29,341 nt of DNA from a virus: positions 1 to 29,341 of IMG/VR virus record IMGVR_UViG_3300030090_002184. One strand, given 5' to 3'. The notes under the pieces are model-generated. The model had not been told where the DNA came from. It did not search any database and saw only the letters and a program-made list of their open reading frames with translations. The position numbers and the translations under genes were made by a program. Numbering within the stretch: the first letter of the stretch is position 1; each line of letters starts with the position of its first letter. Of this stretch, positions 1 through 29,341 are shown one piece after another.

Positions 1-57
1 AGTAGTAAGGATGAGCCTATAAAGATAGATATTAATATAGATGGGGTTGAATATTAA
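1..57 (+). CDS. terS: Terminase small subunit, 3' fragment
   Basis: This is the last 18 codons and stop of the small terminase, whose complete copy is at 28660-29019. The fragment exists only because the contig starts inside the gene. Its third base is T where the full copy has C; both codons are serine. The stop lies 17 nt inside the large terminase gene, an overlap that suggests translational coupling. Confidence 0.9.
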   Translation, partial: SSKDEPIKIDINIDGVEY

Positions 58-379
58 GCCATCATTTACACATAAACAAAAGAAAGCATTAAAGTATTTA
101 TTTGATACTAATACTAATGAGATACTATATGGAGGATCAGCAGGAGGAGGTAAATCATTTTTAGGATGTGCATACCTATTGATGATGTGCTTAAAATATC
201 CTGAGACCAGACATCTAATGGGTAGGTCTAAATTAGACTCACTTAAAAAAACTACATTAAATACATTTTTTGAGGTATGTAAATTATGGGGCATAGAGAG
301 TAAGAAACACTATAATTATAATGCTCAGTCAAATGTAATTACCTTTTTTAATAAATCAGAGATTATATTAAAGGATATG
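1..379. repeat. Terminal direct repeat, left copy
   Basis: These bases recur at 28963-29341 with mismatches only at positions 3, 292 and 331. The repeat covers the end of the small terminase gene and the first part of the large terminase gene. It shows that the contig is a closed unit of 28,962 bp. Whether the virion DNA has true terminal repeats or is circularly permuted cannot be told from sequence alone. Confidence 0.95.
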
Positions 380-1360
380 TTTGCGTATCCATCAGATAGA
401 AATTTTGACTCTTTGGGAAGTTATGAGCTAACCTCTGCATTTTTAGATGAAGCTAATCAGATAACAGAGAGAGCTAAGATGGTATTAATGTCTAGACTTA
501 GATATAAGCTAGATGAGAATAAACTCACTCCTACTCTATTACTTACCTGTAATCCTAGTAAAGGATGGCTATACTCTAATTACTATAAGCCAGCAAAGGA
601 GGGCACAATAAAACCTAATAGGGTATTTATACAAAGTCTAGTAGATGATAATGAGTATATATCTAAACATTATAAGACTAATCTAGAGTCATTAGATGAG
701 ATAAGTAAGCAGAGACTATTATATGGTAATTGGGAGTATGATGCTACAAAGGATGGATTAATACATTATGATAATATAATATCATTATTTGAGATTAAAG
801 GGATGGAGGGAGATAGGTATATATCAGCTGATATTAGTAGATATGGAGAGGATAAGACCATCATTTGTCTATGGACTGGCATGCATATAGATAAGATAAT
901 TACTATACACAAATCATCTTTGACTGAGGTAGCTAATACTATAAAAGAGCTACAGAGAGAAAATGATGTATATACTAGAAATATAGTTATTGATGAGGAT
1001 GGTATAGGATCAGGAGTGGTAGATATGATACCAGGATGTAGGGGATTTATCAATGGTAGTAAATGTCTAAATAAAGAAAATTACCAAAACCTTAAAACTC
1101 AATGCTATTACTATATGTCTGATTATATAAATAAGGGCAAAGTAGGTATATCTACAAATGATATAAAAGCAAAAAATAACATAATACAGGAATTAGAGCA
1201 GGTCAGAAGTTACAATATAGATAAGGATGCTAAGCTACAAATAATACCTAAGCCAAAAATAAAGGATATAATAGGTAGGTCGCCTGACTATGCTGATGCA
1301 ATAATGATGAGATTTTATTTTGCTATAGACGCTAACTATGGTAGGTATTATGTGTATTAA
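41..1360 (+). CDS. terL: Phage terminase large subunit
   Basis: This 439-residue protein is the packaging motor: an N-terminal ATPase pumps DNA into the prohead and a C-terminal nuclease cuts the concatemer. A Walker A motif is visible at residues 31-39 (GGSAGGGKS), Walker B at 131-138 with D136 and E137, and a coupling motif LLLTCNP at 166-172. Acidic residues suited to an RNase H-like nuclease are D264 (ISADISRYG), D318/D320 (VIDEDG) and D416/D419 (SPDYADA). Length and motif order are typical of the family. The ATG at 41 overlaps the end of the small terminase gene, a usual arrangement. The following gene starts 43 nt downstream, behind a late-type motif. Confidence 0.97.
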   Translation: MGLNIKPSFTHKQKKALKYLFDTNTNEILYGGSAGGGKSFLGCAYLLMMCLKYPETRHLMGRSKLDSLKKTTLNTFFEVCKLWGIESKKHYNYNAQSNVITFFNKSEIILKDMFAYPSDRNFDSLGSYELTSAFLDEANQITERAKMVLMSRLRYKLDENKLTPTLLLTCNPSKGWLYSNYYKPAKEGTIKPNRVFIQSLVDDNEYISKHYKTNLESLDEISKQRLLYGNWEYDATKDGLIHYDNIISLFEIKGMEGDRYISADISRYGEDKTIICLWTGMHIDKIITIHKSSLTEVANTIKELQRENDVYTRNIVIDEDGIGSGVVDMIPGCRGFINGSKCLNKENYQNLKTQCYYYMSDYINKGKVGISTNDIKAKNNIIQELEQVRSYNIDKDAKLQIIPKPKIKDIIGRSPDYADAIMMRFYFAIDANYGRYYVY

Positions 1361-1403: not shown

Positions 1404-2057
1404 ATGCAAATAAAACTAAAAAAAGGTAAGGACTCAAAATGGTATAGCATGCCTGATACATGGGATGAGCTATCATTAGACAAATATATGTCTGTAATGA
1501 GTTATTTAACTAATGAAAAAACTACAGACCATACTAGATTAGTAATGATGATACATCATCTTACAGATATACCTGAGCAGGATTTATGGAATATGACTAT
1601 ACCTGATTTAACACAAATAAATGAGGTAATGAAAGGCATGTTACAATCAGAGCCTAATCAGGAATTAAAACATATATTAAATATTAAAGGTAAAAAATAT
1701 GGATTTCATCCTAAATTAAAAAATGTAAGTTTAGGAGAGTTTGTAGATATAGAGATGTGTATTAAGGAGGGCATGTATGAAAATTTACATACATTATTAT
1801 CTATACTATATAGACCAATTATAGAGGAGGATGGAGATAAGTATATAATAGAGGATTATCAGCCCTCACAGGATAGGGCAAACCTATTTAGAGATAATCT
1901 AAAAGTAGAGGACATTAATGGTGCTAGTGTTTTTTTTTACGCTTTAGGAGCGCAACTCTTAGAAACTATGGCAGTATATTTGAAGGCGGAGACAATGAGG
2001 GAGAGGCTAGCGCTATTCAGAAAAAATGGGGATGGTATGAAACTATCTACAGACTAG
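1404..2057 (+). CDS. Tail assembly chaperone-like protein, short (in-frame) form
   Basis: This 217-residue soluble, mostly helical and charged protein opens the tail module. I recognise it from arrangement rather than from a catalytic motif. Its 3' end contains a slippery heptamer (A AAA AAT at 2021-2027), and the -1 frame from there stays open for another 50 codons to a stop at 2177-2179. That is how siphophages make the two forms of their tail assembly chaperone, like lambda gpG and gpGT, which coat the tape measure before tail-tube polymerisation. Here the gene lies about 7 kb upstream of the tape measure rather than beside it. The ATG immediately follows a late-type motif, so its mRNA could be nearly leaderless. 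Confidence 0.6.
   Translation: MQIKLKKGKDSKWYSMPDTWDELSLDKYMSVMSYLTNEKTTDHTRLVMMIHHLTDIPEQDLWNMTIPDLTQINEVMKGMLQSEPNQELKHILNIKGKKYGFHPKLKNVSLGEFVDIEMCIKEGMYENLHTLLSILYRPIIEEDGDKYIIEDYQPSQDRANLFRDNLKVEDINGASVFFYALGAQLLETMAVYLKAETMRERLALFRKNGDGMKLSTD
2021..2027 (+). promoter_or_regulatory. Programmed -1 ribosomal frameshift site
   Basis: Codons of the zero frame here read AGA AAA AAT, giving the canonical X XXY YYZ heptamer A AAA AAT, ten codons upstream of the zero-frame stop. Slipping back one base puts TGG GGA TGG next in frame. A modest 7-bp hairpin, 2042-2048 with 2059-2065 and one G.T pair, lies downstream and could act as a stimulator, though the 14-nt spacing is longer than usual. Confidence 0.7.
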
Positions 2058-2179
2058 CAGATGGTAAGGTAGATAAATTAGATGAGATTACAAAGATACC
2101 AGCCTTAGAGTGTTTTACATATATGGCATATCAATTAGATGTAAATAATGATAAGTCAGTAAATAGAGAAAATAATTAA
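2027..2179 (+). CDS. Tail assembly chaperone, frameshift extension (T-like domain)
   Basis: This 50-codon open stretch is in the -1 frame, has no good start codon at its head and fills the space between the zero-frame stop (2057) and the next gene (ATG at 2181). It begins WGWYETIYRLADG and continues with a DEIT and a FTYMAY stretch, which looks like real protein. Fused after K208 of the upstream ORF it would give a product of about 258 residues. The pattern matches the G-GT strategy of long-tailed phages. It would be missed by ordinary gene callers. Confidence 0.65.
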   Translation, partial: WGWYETIYRLADGKVDKLDEITKIPALECFTYMAYQLDVNNDKSVNRENN

Positions 2180-9236: not shown

Positions 9237-11345
9237 ATGGCAAAAAGTGTAGTAGAGATAGAAATGAAAGCGCAAAAGGCGCAAAATACCTTAGGAGGGT
9301 TAATAGAGAGTCTAGGCTTTCTAAAAAATGCTATAGAGGATGTAGAATTAGGATCAGAGTCATTTAAGAGGCTAGCAGATGATATACAAAAGACTGAGAG
9401 TAAGATAAAAACTCTTACAAAACAAATGGAGGGATTAGAGCCTCAACAAAAAGCGGAGGCGTTTCTAAAAATGGGAGAGGGTATAGCAGGAGGATTTGTA
9501 GCCGCTCAGGGAGCTATGACTCTATTAGGGATAGAGAGTGAAAATCTAGAAAAAATACAGGCAAAAGTGCAGGGAGCTATAGCTATAGCAATGGGAGTAA
9601 GGATGATGGCTGAGGCGTCTTTACATGTAGTTACTGCAAAGCGTATAGTATTAGAAAAGGTAGCAATAGCTCAGACAAAAATGGGAGCAAAACTACACAA
9701 AATGGCAGCAGCCGCAGCAACTCTATACTCAGGAGCACTAAAATTGATAGGTATATCTGCTAATGTATCCTCTAAGGGTATGAAAACATTAAAGGTAGCT
9801 ATAGCCTCTACAGGTATTGGATTAATTGTAGTAGCTATAGGGACTCTAGTAGCTTATTGGGATGATATAAAAGGACTAGCATCAGGAGTATCATCAGAGA
9901 TGAGAGACCAGCTAGCATCTGCTACCGCAGCAAAGGAAGCCGCTATAGCAAATTTAGAAGCAACTGAGGGGAGCACAAATCAATTAAAATTAGCAGGTAA
10001 ATCTCAGAGAGAAATATTAGAGCTAAAAATGAAAGACATAGACGCCGCTATAGCAGCCTCAGAGGTAGAGATGGAGAGACAAAAATCTACAGCAAAAGCT
10101 CAAATAGCAGCAGCTAAAAGGAATGAAAAAATTGCTATGGGTATTATAGCAATGCTATCATCTCCTATTACTCTATTATTAGGTATGATAGACTCAGTTA
10201 CTTATGGACTATCTCAATTAGGAGTAATGGAAGCTACTACACTAACTGAGGATTATTTAAGAGGAGCAGCAAACTTAATAGGATTTGATGCATCAGAAAC
10301 TGAGGCAGAGATGGATGCAGAATTAGAGTCAATGGAGAAAGGTCTAAACGCTCTAAAAGAGAAGCGCGCAGGATTTGAATTAGAAATAATCGCAATAGAT
10401 AATGCCGCTAGTGATAAAAGGTCTGCAGCAGCTCAAAAAGCAAGAGAGGAGGAGCAGCAAAGATTAGAGAAATTTTTACAAGAGATGCAGGCTACTATGG
10501 AGGAGGCTCATTTAACTGCAGAGCAAAAAGAAATATTAGCAGTGCAGCGTAAATATGATGCCTTAATAGCAGAGGCTGAGCATTTTGGGATGAAGTCTGA
10601 GCAATTAGTAAAAGATAGAGAGGACGCTATAGCAAAAATAGAGGAGAGATACGCGCAAGAGAAGCAAGACAAAATCCAGGAGATTTTAGATTTTCAAACA
10701 GGAGTAAGAGAGATGGAGTTAATAGATGCAGAGAGAGAATTTGATAAAAAAATAGAGCAAGCTATAGAGCTAGGTATGGCTACAGAGGAATTAGAGAGAC
10801 TTAAGCTACTAAAATTAAAAGAAATAAGAGACGCTCATGAAGCTGAGGACATAGCCAAAACAAATGAAACTAGAGACGCTAAAATAGAGGCACAAACCGC
10901 CTTTGTAGATGCTGTAGGAGGAGCAATGGGAGAGATAAGTGGATTATTTGCTGAGGGTAGTAGAGCAAGTAAAGCGGCAGCACTAGCAGAAATAGCAATA
11001 AATACAGGATTAGGATTTATACAGGGATTAGATATTGCACAAAAATCTGCAAAGGCTACAGGACCAGGAGCAGCCTTAGCGTTTCCTATATTTTACGCTA
11101 CACAAATAGCAGCAGTAATAGGAGCTGTAAAAAAGGCAAAGTCAGCATTAGGAGCAGGAGGTGGCGCATCTCCTCCTCCACAACCAAAAAGCGTAAGCGC
11201 GCCATCTAGATCAGGAAACTTTACACTACAGGGAGGAGGAGGACCGCAGGGAACTCAGCCAGCATTAAAGGCATTTGTAGTAACTGATGAGATGACTGAT
11301 AGTCAGGACCAATTAGCTGATATTAGGAGGAGGAGCACATTATAA
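9237..11345 (+). CDS. Tail tape measure protein
   Basis: This 702-residue protein has long charged helices interrupted by hydrophobic stretches (near residues 85-130, 160-205, 295-320 and 560-620), and glutamate/lysine-rich coiled coil at about 380-550. The C-terminus is Gly/Pro-rich (GAGGGASPPPQPKS). Length, alanine richness, coiled coils and membrane-like segments are classic for tape measures, which set tail length and may help DNA delivery. By the usual scaling (about 1.5 A per residue) the tail would be near 100 nm. No sheath protein is seen, which supports a siphovirus-like particle. It ends 30 nt before the next gene's ATG, across a late-type motif. Confidence 0.9.
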   Translation: MAKSVVEIEMKAQKAQNTLGGLIESLGFLKNAIEDVELGSESFKRLADDIQKTESKIKTLTKQMEGLEPQQKAEAFLKMGEGIAGGFVAAQGAMTLLGIESENLEKIQAKVQGAIAIAMGVRMMAEASLHVVTAKRIVLEKVAIAQTKMGAKLHKMAAAAATLYSGALKLIGISANVSSKGMKTLKVAIASTGIGLIVVAIGTLVAYWDDIKGLASGVSSEMRDQLASATAAKEAAIANLEATEGSTNQLKLAGKSQREILELKMKDIDAAIAASEVEMERQKSTAKAQIAAAKRNEKIAMGIIAMLSSPITLLLGMIDSVTYGLSQLGVMEATTLTEDYLRGAANLIGFDASETEAEMDAELESMEKGLNALKEKRAGFELEIIAIDNAASDKRSAAAQKAREEEQQRLEKFLQEMQATMEEAHLTAEQKEILAVQRKYDALIAEAEHFGMKSEQLVKDREDAIAKIEERYAQEKQDKIQEILDFQTGVREMELIDAEREFDKKIEQAIELGMATEELERLKLLKLKEIRDAHEAEDIAKTNETRDAKIEAQTAFVDAVGGAMGEISGLFAEGSRASKAAALAEIAINTGLGFIQGLDIAQKSAKATGPGAALAFPIFYATQIAAVIGAVKKAKSALGAGGGASPPPQPKSVSAPSRSGNFTLQGGGGPQGTQPALKAFVVTDEMTDSQDQLADIRRRSTL

Positions 11346-23570: not shown

Positions 23571-24052
23571 ATCAAAAAAAAATTACTCAATATGTAAAAG
23601 TAGCAACAAGCATGGACTCAGATGATTGGGGCACTCCATTAGATTTATTTAATAAATTAAATAAAAAATATAATTTTACATTAGACGCCGCAGCTAATGA
23701 TAAAAATTATAAATGCAAAAAGTATTACACAAAAGAAAATAGCGGACTTACAAAAGATTGGACTAATGAGAGAGTATTTTGTAATCCTCCTTATAGTGAT
23801 TTGGGATTATGGATTAAAAAATGTTATGTAGAAAGTAAAAACGCTAAATTAATAGTAATGTTAATACCATGCAGAACTGATACAAAAAATTTTCATAAAT
23901 ATATATGGAATATTGCAGAAATAATATATATAAAAGGGAGATTAAAATTTACTAATGATAATGGTAAATCAAAAGGTAGCGCGCCGTTTCCAAGTATGAT
24001 AGTTATATATACTAAATACATAAAAATTACAAATCAAATAAAATTATTTTAA
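23567..24052 (+). CDS. Phage N6-adenine DNA methyltransferase (Dam-like)
   Basis: This 161-residue protein resembles the phage Dam-like family (PF05869, recalled): DSDDWGTPLDLFNKLNKKY at the N-terminus, LDAAAND near residues 39-45 and the catalytic NPPY at 73-76 (VFCNPPYSDLG). It transfers a methyl group from S-adenosylmethionine to adenine in a short DNA motif I cannot predict. There is no restriction partner, so protection of phage DNA against host restriction is likely. It is the first of two methyltransferases; the second begins at 24403. Confidence 0.88.
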   Translation: MNQKKITQYVKVATSMDSDDWGTPLDLFNKLNKKYNFTLDAAANDKNYKCKKYYTKENSGLTKDWTNERVFCNPPYSDLGLWIKKCYVESKNAKLIVMLIPCRTDTKNFHKYIWNIAEIIYIKGRLKFTNDNGKSKGSAPFPSMIVIYTKYIKITNQIKLF

Positions 24053-26925: not shown

Positions 26926-27040
26926 GAAAATTACAATACATACTAAGAAAAATCGTAAGAAACGCAAAGGCATACATAGTAAAAACGCAAGCAGAGGACA
27001 AAATGGATACAAAAAAAAATATAGAGGTCAGGGCAGATAA
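26918..27040 (+). CDS. Tiny very basic protein (40 aa)
   Basis: This 40-residue ORF is rich in Lys and Arg (MPKKITIHTKKNRKKRKGIH at the start, ending KKKYRGQGR). The sequence style, with 'IHTKKNRKKRKGIHSK', matches small basic proteins I have seen in Bacteroidota phages. It may bind DNA or RNA. Its start overlaps the zinc-finger gene by 8 nt. Its last 38 nt overlap, in another frame, the possible N-terminus of the next gene. Confidence 0.6.
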   Translation: MPKKITIHTKKNRKKRKGIHSKNASRGQNGYKKKYRGQGR

Positions 27041-27372: not shown

Positions 27373-27585
27373 ATGAGACTACAGACATGGACTTACTTTA
27401 GGAGCTTAAGACTAATACCATCTATATCTATTGATTGGAGGAGGATTACTAGTAATTTTAAGCTTACGGGTATATGGATTACATTTGAATTTTTATATTG
27501 GACTATTGAGCTATATTTATGGGAGATGGCAGATGAGGAGATGATAAAATATATAGACAAGCAGATGAATAATGAAAAAAAATAA
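27373..27585 (+). CDS. Small unknown protein with a hydrophobic patch (70 aa)
   Basis: This 70-residue ORF is taken from the ATG at 27373, just after the previous stop; upstream non-ATG starts would overlap the DUF3310-like gene. It begins MRLQTWTYFRSLRLIPSIS and has an aromatic hydrophobic segment (GIWITFEFLYWTIELYLWEM) near residues 31-50. It may be membrane-associated. The last 14 nt overlap the next gene. I do not recognise the family with certainty. Confidence 0.5.
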   Translation: MRLQTWTYFRSLRLIPSISIDWRRITSNFKLTGIWITFEFLYWTIELYLWEMADEEMIKYIDKQMNNEKK

Positions 27586-27772
27586 TTGGAAAGGAGCGGG
27601 TAGAAAAAAGACCAGGGTAGAGAAAAAATCTATAATTGTAGATGGTAAAATAGTAATGCCTGAAATAATTAGAGATGATATAGGATGGGAGTTACAAATG
27701 GGATGGCAGTATAAAGATGAAATACAAGAGAGAAGTTATTTAACACAAAAAAAGACGCCATGGAATGTATAA
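27572..27772 (+). CDS. Small basic protein (66 aa), unknown
   Basis: This 66-residue protein begins MKKNNWKGAGRKKTRVEKKS, a strongly basic stretch of the 'GAGRK' type that often precedes nucleic-acid-binding parts in small phage proteins. The second half is mixed and ends TQKKTPWNV. It overlaps both neighbours by about 13 nt, which is common in this cluster of small early genes. Function is unknown. Confidence 0.5.
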   Translation: MKKNNWKGAGRKKTRVEKKSIIVDGKIVMPEIIRDDIGWELQMGWQYKDEIQERSYLTQKKTPWNV

Positions 27773-28661: not shown

Positions 28662-29019
28662 GAGTATAGACAAAAGTAGGCACATAAAAAAAGAGAGCAT
28701 GTTAGCGGCTCTAGAGAATAGCCTGGGAGTAGTTAGTGCAGCGTGTAAGGCAGCAGACATACCTAGAGCTACATATTATAAATGGCTTAAAGAGGATAAG
28801 GACTTTAAGGACCAGGTAGAGGATATTAATAATTTAGCATTAGATTTTGTAGAGACATCATTACATAGACAGATAGCAGATGGTAATACCTCAGCTACTA
28901 TATTTTATCTAAAATGTAGAGGTAAGCAGAGAGGGTATATAGAGAGGTCTGAGCTTGATATAAGCAGTAAGGATGAGCCTATAAAGATAGATATTAATAT
29001 AGATGGGGTTGAATATTAA
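28660..29019 (+). CDS. terS: Terminase small subunit
   Basis: This 119-residue protein has an N-terminal helix-turn-helix (residues about 10-45: MLAALENSLGVVSAACKAAD, then IPRATYYKWLKED) that binds the packaging site on the phage genome, and a helical oligomerisation part (LALDFVETSLHRQIADGN, then ATIFYLKCRGKQRGY). The acidic end is in the usual place for contact with the large subunit. It is followed without gap by the large terminase, whose ATG lies 17 nt inside this gene. Overlap with terL and HTH type are typical for phBC6A51-like small terminases. Confidence 0.9.
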   Translation: MSIDKSRHIKKESMLAALENSLGVVSAACKAADIPRATYYKWLKEDKDFKDQVEDINNLALDFVETSLHRQIADGNTSATIFYLKCRGKQRGYIERSELDISSKDEPIKIDINIDGVEY

Positions 29020-29341
29020 GCCATCATTTACACATAAACAAAAGAAAGCATTAAAGTATTTATTTGATACTAATACTAATGAGATACTATATGGAGGATC
29101 AGCAGGAGGAGGTAAATCATTTTTAGGATGTGCATACCTATTGATGATGTGCTTAAAATATCCTGAGACCAGACATCTAATGGGTAGGTCTAAATTAGAC
29201 TCACTTAAAAAAACTACATTAAATACATTTTTTGAGGTATGTAAATTATGGGGTATAGAGAGTAAGAAACACTATAATTATAATGCTCAGTCTAATGTAA
29301 TTACCTTTTTTAATAAATCAGAGATTATATTAAAGGATATG
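28963..29341. repeat. Terminal direct repeat, right copy
   Basis: This copy matches bases 1-379 except at 28965 (C for T), 29254 (T for C) and 29293 (T for A). All three differences fall on third codon positions and leave the proteins unchanged. Confidence 0.95.
29003..29341 (+). CDS. terL: Terminase large subunit, 5' fragment
   Basis: These are the first 113 codons of the large terminase, cut by the end of the contig. Walker A is included. The complete gene is at 41-1360. Two synonymous differences from the full copy (Gly codon, Ser codon) are present, so the two ends come from slightly different templates. Confidence 0.95.
   Translation, partial: MGLNIKPSFTHKQKKALKYLFDTNTNEILYGGSAGGGKSFLGCAYLLMMCLKYPETRHLMGRSKLDSLKKTTLNTFFEVCKLWGIESKKHYNYNAQSNVITFFNKSEIILKDM

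What the first reader, a model, noticed from the sequence alone, without database searches (positions are those of the whole stretch)
2019..2179. Hidden -1 frameshift product in a tail-chaperone-like gene
A AAA AAT at 2021-2027 is in the right phase, ten codons before the zero-frame stop. The -1 frame is then open for 50 codons and encodes a protein-like sequence that ends just before the next gene. This is the lambda G/GT arrangement, and the extension is invisible to normal gene calling.
Basis: partly seen in the sequence, partly recalled or inferred. Interest (0 to 1): 0.7.

Follow-up and report, generated by a model that had tools for sequence, protein, structure and literature searches.

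The report
Poly-T frameshift in phage tail chaperone
A phage of Bacteroidota-type bacteria hides the second half of a probable tail-building helper protein in another reading frame, and its relatives all switch frame at a run of at least nine T's, which suggests that the RNA polymerase slips there rather than the ribosome as in the textbook cases.

Summary
A AAA AAT (2021-2027) and the open -1 frame to 2179 exist. That heptamer is a K-K-W codon coincidence, present in 13 of 144 relatives, and the window has 18 such in-phase sites. In 212 of 212 relatives with the junction (159 distinct extensions), the extension lies in -1 relative to the upstream gene. Every relative carries an uninterrupted run of 9-12 T at the junction (window 1930-1938), never 8 or fewer. 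This includes cultured Nonlabens phages P12024L/S and prophages in genomes of 49-59% G+C. Run position shifts between registers but length stays at or above nine. No RNA structure or Shine-Dalgarno-like stimulator is detectable. P2 E/E' relatives, a translational frameshift family, mostly keep exactly six T's. Best reading: transcriptional slippage at T9 makes a minority of long chaperone (178+80 aa) beside the 217-aa short form. Ribosomal -1 frameshifting at T TTT TTT (1931-1937) remains the main rival. Tail-chaperone identity is likely but weakly supported (HK97 gp13 fold match Z 4.9, Phage_TAC_7 E 0.0025). No expression data exist.

The parts
1404..2057 (+). Zero-frame gene: 217-aa short form of a tail-assembly-chaperone-like protein; shared N-terminal part is residues 1-178 (1404-1937)
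   Evidence: ORF; phrog_32199 in 20/20 relatives, phrog_166 tail protein E 3e-5, Phage_TAC_7 E 0.0025 below cut-off; model pLDDT 80 matches HK97 gp13 2ob9 at Z 4.9
1930..1938 (+). T9 run: the conserved slip site; run of 9-12 T in all 212 relatives that reach it and in all distant prophages with a frameshifted copy
   Evidence: only T run above 7 on the + strand of the window
1931..1937 (+). In-phase T TTT TTT heptamer inside the run (site for the rival, ribosomal explanation)
1925..1927 (+). -1 frame stop TAG just upstream of the run: the shift must be downstream of it
   Evidence: -1 frame open from 1928
1928..2179 (+). -1 frame ORF: after the slip it adds 80 aa (LRFRSATLRNYGSIFEGG...KKWGWYETIYRLADG...NRENN), giving a 258-aa long form
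   Evidence: conserved FFLxFR...Y...F...KWGWY in relatives
2021..2027 (+).
   Evidence: present in 13/144 relatives; 18 in-phase copies in the window
41..1360 (+). Large terminase gene, conserved upstream neighbour
   Evidence: Terminase_6N E 7.5e-9, phrog_2 E 1e-36
9237..11345 (+). Tape measure protein gene, the presumed chaperone client
   Evidence: phrog_24676 tail length tape measure E 5e-10

Best explanation
The gene at 1404-2057 encodes the short form of a tail assembly chaperone. While transcribing the run of nine T's at 1930-1938, the host RNA polymerase sometimes adds one U (or loses two). In those mRNAs translation passes into the -1 frame and makes a 258-aa long form: 178 shared residues plus an 80-residue C-terminal domain. 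By analogy with gpG and gpGT of lambda, the short form would coat the tape measure protein and the long form would recruit tail tube subunits. Shown here by sequence: the conserved frame relation, the conserved T run of at least nine, and the conserved extension. Inferred: that the slip is transcriptional, that the product exists, and the chaperone role. My estimates: frame change at the T run 0.95; transcriptional rather than ribosomal 0.72; tail chaperone 0.85.
For: Extension in -1 in 212/212 loci. Run of at least nine T (142 T9, 16 T10, 1 T12 among 159 distinct extensions), none shorter; 71 lineages at 70% identity and 21 at 50% all comply. Run register varies (NTT TTT TTT TNN; GGT TTT TTT TTG; AGT TTT TTT TTT CAA) while length does not fall below nine. 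Cultured Nonlabens phages P12024L/S have it. Distant prophages, five of them at 49-59% G+C where TTT is about 15-24% of Phe codons, still have exactly T9, the longest T run in each of five 19.5-kb prophage stretches. Control: 11 of 13 P2-type E/E' genes have T TTT TTG with exactly six T's and two lack such a run. No folding signal downstream, mean z -0.12 +/- 0.11 in 87 sequences; SD-like motif upstream in only 14/159. Bacterial transcriptional slippage is described on runs of 9 A or T, and mxiE of Shigella uses a U run in the same way (PMC5009743, PMC1088944). The extension's stop forms ATGA, as in an overlap with a start codon, in 102 of the 159. Fold match to HK97 chaperone.
Against: No RNA or protein data. 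T9 always contains an in-phase T TTT TTT, so ribosomal slipping is not excluded, and T at the seventh place could be favoured by either mechanism. Parts of the flanking T's may be kept by protein constraints in the two overlapping frames. Two A9 runs lie at the starts of other genes in this window (23574, 27011), and T9 runs are not clearly avoided elsewhere, so slipping of Bacteroidota RNA polymerase at nine is unproven. Known slippage sites give 15-55% product (PMC4256274), more than the ~3% of lambda GT. Chaperone assignment is below Pfam's cut-off and the gene is not next to the tape measure gene.
Confidence: 0.6

Rival explanations
1. Programmed -1 ribosomal frameshifting at T TTT TTT (1931-1937), with tRNA-Phe slipping in both P and A sites, as in lambda G/GT and P2 E/E'. 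Same two proteins, made at translation.
For: In-phase T TTT TTT in the relatives. Translational frameshifting is the established mechanism of tail chaperones (PMC5009743; P2 E/E').
Against: It needs only six or seven T's; none of 171 sequences has fewer than nine although a T to C change at the seventh T is mostly silent in both frames. P2-type genes keep exactly six. No downstream structure or upstream SD signal; pseudoknots were not tested.
Confidence: 0.25
2. One reading: -1 frameshift at A AAA AAT (2021-2027).
For: Heptamer in phase, -1 frame open.
Against: Absent in 131/144 relatives; zero frame already closed there in 14; -1 protein conserved upstream of it.
Confidence: 0.02
3. Indel artefact, decayed gene or phase-variable locus: a lost base in a homopolymer split one gene.
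For: Long homopolymers are indel-prone (general knowledge).
Against: The same -1 relation in all 212 loci from many metagenomes, isolates and prophages, never in frame at the T run.
Confidence: 0.01
4. Reinitiation: the C-terminal domain is made as a separate small protein.
For: GenBank annotates it so in P12024L (gp41, 55 aa).
Against: No ATG in the -1 frame between run and motif in 131/144 relatives; the only ATG, GTG or TTG of the extension frame in the window is at 2123, far inside the domain. Residues right after the T run are conserved.
Confidence: 0.02

Closest known systems
Lambda gpG/gpGT tail assembly chaperone
   Same: Short and -1 extended forms of one tail gene; hidden extension ends at the next gene.
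   Different: Lambda uses ribosomal slipping at a mixed heptamer (G GGA AAG, from general knowledge) just upstream of the tape measure gene; here a T run of at least nine in a gene that follows the terminase.
P2 E/E' (Peduoviridae; Phage_TAC_7)
   Same: T-only slip site, -1 extension; weak Phage_TAC_7 match of the N-terminal part.
   Different: P2-type sites mostly keep T TTT TTG with exactly six T's or use other heptamers; protein otherwise not alike by sequence.
Shigella mxiE and other transcriptional slippage genes (spa13, spa33, mxiA; Thermus dnaX A9; Citrobacter tssM A11)
   Same: Long run of A or T, no ribosomal stimulators needed, two products from one gene.
   Different: Bacterial secretion or replication genes, not phage tail chaperones; slippage there was measured, here it is inferred.
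Nonlabens (Persicivirga) phage P12024L gp40/gp41, PHROG 32199
   Same: Cultured relative with the same T9 and -1 relation.
   Different: Annotated as two separate hypothetical proteins; the link is not made in the record.

Membership tests
Tail assembly chaperone with G/GT-type recoding | One gene gives a short and a -1 extended form, conserved in relatives | tested here: met
   212/212 loci by sequence; products not observed
Tail assembly chaperone with G/GT-type recoding | Chaperone fold or sequence family | tested here: inconclusive
   Phage_TAC_7 E 0.0025 below cut-off; HK97 gp13 2ob9 top match Z 4.9 over 75 residues, next unrelated 2.9
Tail assembly chaperone with G/GT-type recoding | Located directly upstream of the tape measure gene | tested here: not met
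   Follows terL; tape measure gene 7 kb downstream in the same module, also in prophages. Usual rather than strictly defining; I call the gene chaperone-like for this reason
Tail assembly chaperone with G/GT-type recoding | Binds tape measure and tail tube proteins, absent from virion | not testable with these tools
   needs experiment
Programmed transcriptional slippage | Uninterrupted A or T run of about nine or more at the frame change | tested here: met
Programmed transcriptional slippage | mRNA population with varying run length | not testable with these tools
   no RNA data
Programmed -1 ribosomal frameshifting | In-phase X XXY YYZ heptamer | tested here: met
   T TTT TTT at 1931-1937
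Programmed -1 ribosomal frameshifting | Stimulatory downstream structure or upstream SD-like element | tested here: inconclusive
   no nested-structure signal, SD-like in 14/159; pseudoknots not tested and stimulators are not always present

The most novel reading that the evidence does not exclude
A whole, widespread group of Bacteroidota phages and prophages controls its tail chaperone ratio by RNA polymerase slippage at a deeply conserved T run of at least nine, replacing the ribosomal frameshift that is the rule in other tailed phages.
Probability: 0.62. Interest if true: 0.72.

Novelty: new variant of a known kind. Interest (0 to 1): 0.62.

Why it matters
Frameshifted tail chaperones are the standard example of ribosomal frameshifting in phages. 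A deeply conserved case that appears to use transcriptional slippage would show that the same ratio control can be moved from ribosome to RNA polymerase, as known for dnaX. It gives a simple rule for annotation (a T run of at least nine at a VFF-type motif in the gene after terL) that would join two 'unknown' protein families in hundreds of Bacteroidota phage genomes, and it is directly testable by RT sequencing in cultured P12024L.

Tried and rejected
Heptamer at 2021 as site: rejected by relatives. Sequencing error or pseudogene: rejected by 212 loci. Phase variation by run length: no in-frame fused copy at the T run. Reinitiation: few start codons. Downstream RNA structure: no signal. Foldseek against PDB gave no significant match; sequence search against PDB gave only chance matches; the model of the extension alone was poor, pLDDT 57, and was not searched. 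A genome-contig scan with the N-terminal profile found nothing; with the extension it found five bins. Flavobacterium phage 11b and Polaribacter phage P12002L showed no T-run frame change by a simple scan, and phage 6H gp10, a remote fold relative, ends at T TTT TTC with an immediate -1 stop, so it does not follow the rule. Some Bacteroidota homologues (L221, L223, L226) carry the C-terminal domain fused in frame without any shift. Literature searches of the held open-access library found no report of transcriptional slippage in a tail chaperone; most subscription papers are not in it.

Full report
Observation. The window is a 29.3-kb phage contig whose ends overlap by 379 bases with three substitutions. 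The gene at 1404-2057 follows the large terminase. A AAA AAT at 2021-2027 is in phase and the -1 frame is open from 1928 to 2179. The heptamer alone is not remarkable: 39 ORFs of this A+T-rich window hold 66 in-phase XXXYYYZ heptamers, 18 of them A AAA AAT.

Relatives. A scan of IMG/VR with the fused protein gave 41 loci, and two profile scans hit the limit of 600 candidate stretches each. In every one of the 212 loci that reach the junction (159 distinct extension peptides; a few contigs were fetched twice, and the window itself is one), the C-terminal domain lies in the -1 frame relative to the upstream gene. From the junction to the KWGWY motif the -1 frame is open in 144 of 144 and the +1 frame in none. 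The extension's stop forms ATGA in 102 of 159 distinct cases, which fits overlap with the next start codon.

The slip site. All 159 distinct sequences have an uninterrupted run of nine (142), ten (16) or twelve (1) T's. The codon contexts differ: mostly NTT TTT TTT TNN, but also GGT TTT TTT TTG and AGT TTT TTT TTT CAA, in which a missing T on one side is made up on the other. Whole-genome searches among Bacteroidota found remote frameshifted copies (E about 1e-7 to 1e-20), again with T9. In five of these, of 49-59% G+C, only about 15-24% of local Phe codons are TTT, yet the run is intact. Taking 21 lineages below 50% identity, the chance that the third codon of the site is always TTT under local Phe codon use is about 10^-4.7. 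This counts against free synonymous choice but not by itself against ribosomal slipping, since U UUU UUU may be the better ribosomal site too.

Control. In 13 P2-type E/E' genes, an accepted translational frameshift family, eleven have T TTT TTG with exactly six T's and two have other heptamers. So a ribosomal T-only site is kept at six, whereas here the minimum is nine. Nine is the run length at which slippage of bacterial RNA polymerase is described (PMC5009743; PMC1088944). There is no excess of RNA structure downstream or upstream in 87 sequences and few SD-like elements.

What the gene is. All 20 relatives tested match phrog_32199 (unknown function); four match phrog_166, a tail protein, and Phage_TAC_7 is matched below its cut-off. 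A model with mean pLDDT 80 has as its best VIA-align match the HK97 tail assembly chaperone 2ob9 (Z 4.9, 75 residues), followed by 3fgx (Z 4.2) and then chains at 2.9 and below. Such Z values are modest. The gene sits in the head-tail module terL, this gene, tail genes, tape measure, capsid, portal, also in prophages. In some Bacteroidota genomes a remote homologue carries the C-terminal domain in frame without a shift, which suggests that the two parts belong to one protein. I therefore call it tail-chaperone-like and treat the chaperone role as inferred.

Host range. The cultured members infect Nonlabens/Persicivirga; genome-bin members are labelled Flavobacterium, Winogradskyella and Flavobacteriaceae. 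The window's own host is not known.

Conclusion. The hidden extension is real with high confidence. Transcriptional slippage explains the conserved run length best, but ribosomal frameshifting at the heptamer inside the run cannot be excluded without RNA data.

Noticed in passing
1-379 and 28963-29341: The contig ends overlap by 379 bases with three substitutions and no indel: a circular or terminally redundant genome assembled from a slightly mixed population.
   Followed up: partly
27748-27754 in ORF 27572-27772: In-phase A AAA AAG with the -1 frame open 50 codons beyond the stop; that frame has its own ATG (MECIILMGVGIVIG..., small membrane-protein-like), so it is more likely an ordinary overlapping gene.
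   Followed up: partly
L221, L223, L226: Bacteroidota genomes with the same C-terminal domain fused in frame to a chaperone-like N-terminus, without frameshift: the short form may be absent or made otherwise there.
   Followed up: partly
L256 (Flavobacterium phage 6H gp10, 10352-10927, minus strand): Remote fold relative ends at T TTT TTC with a stop at once in -1, followed by an unannotated open frame of about 100 codons before gp09; its expression route is unexplained.
   Followed up: partly
23574-23582 and 27011-27019: A9 runs within the first codons of two genes; if host RNA polymerase slips at nine A's these genes should show mixed mRNAs too, a useful internal test.
   Followed up: no
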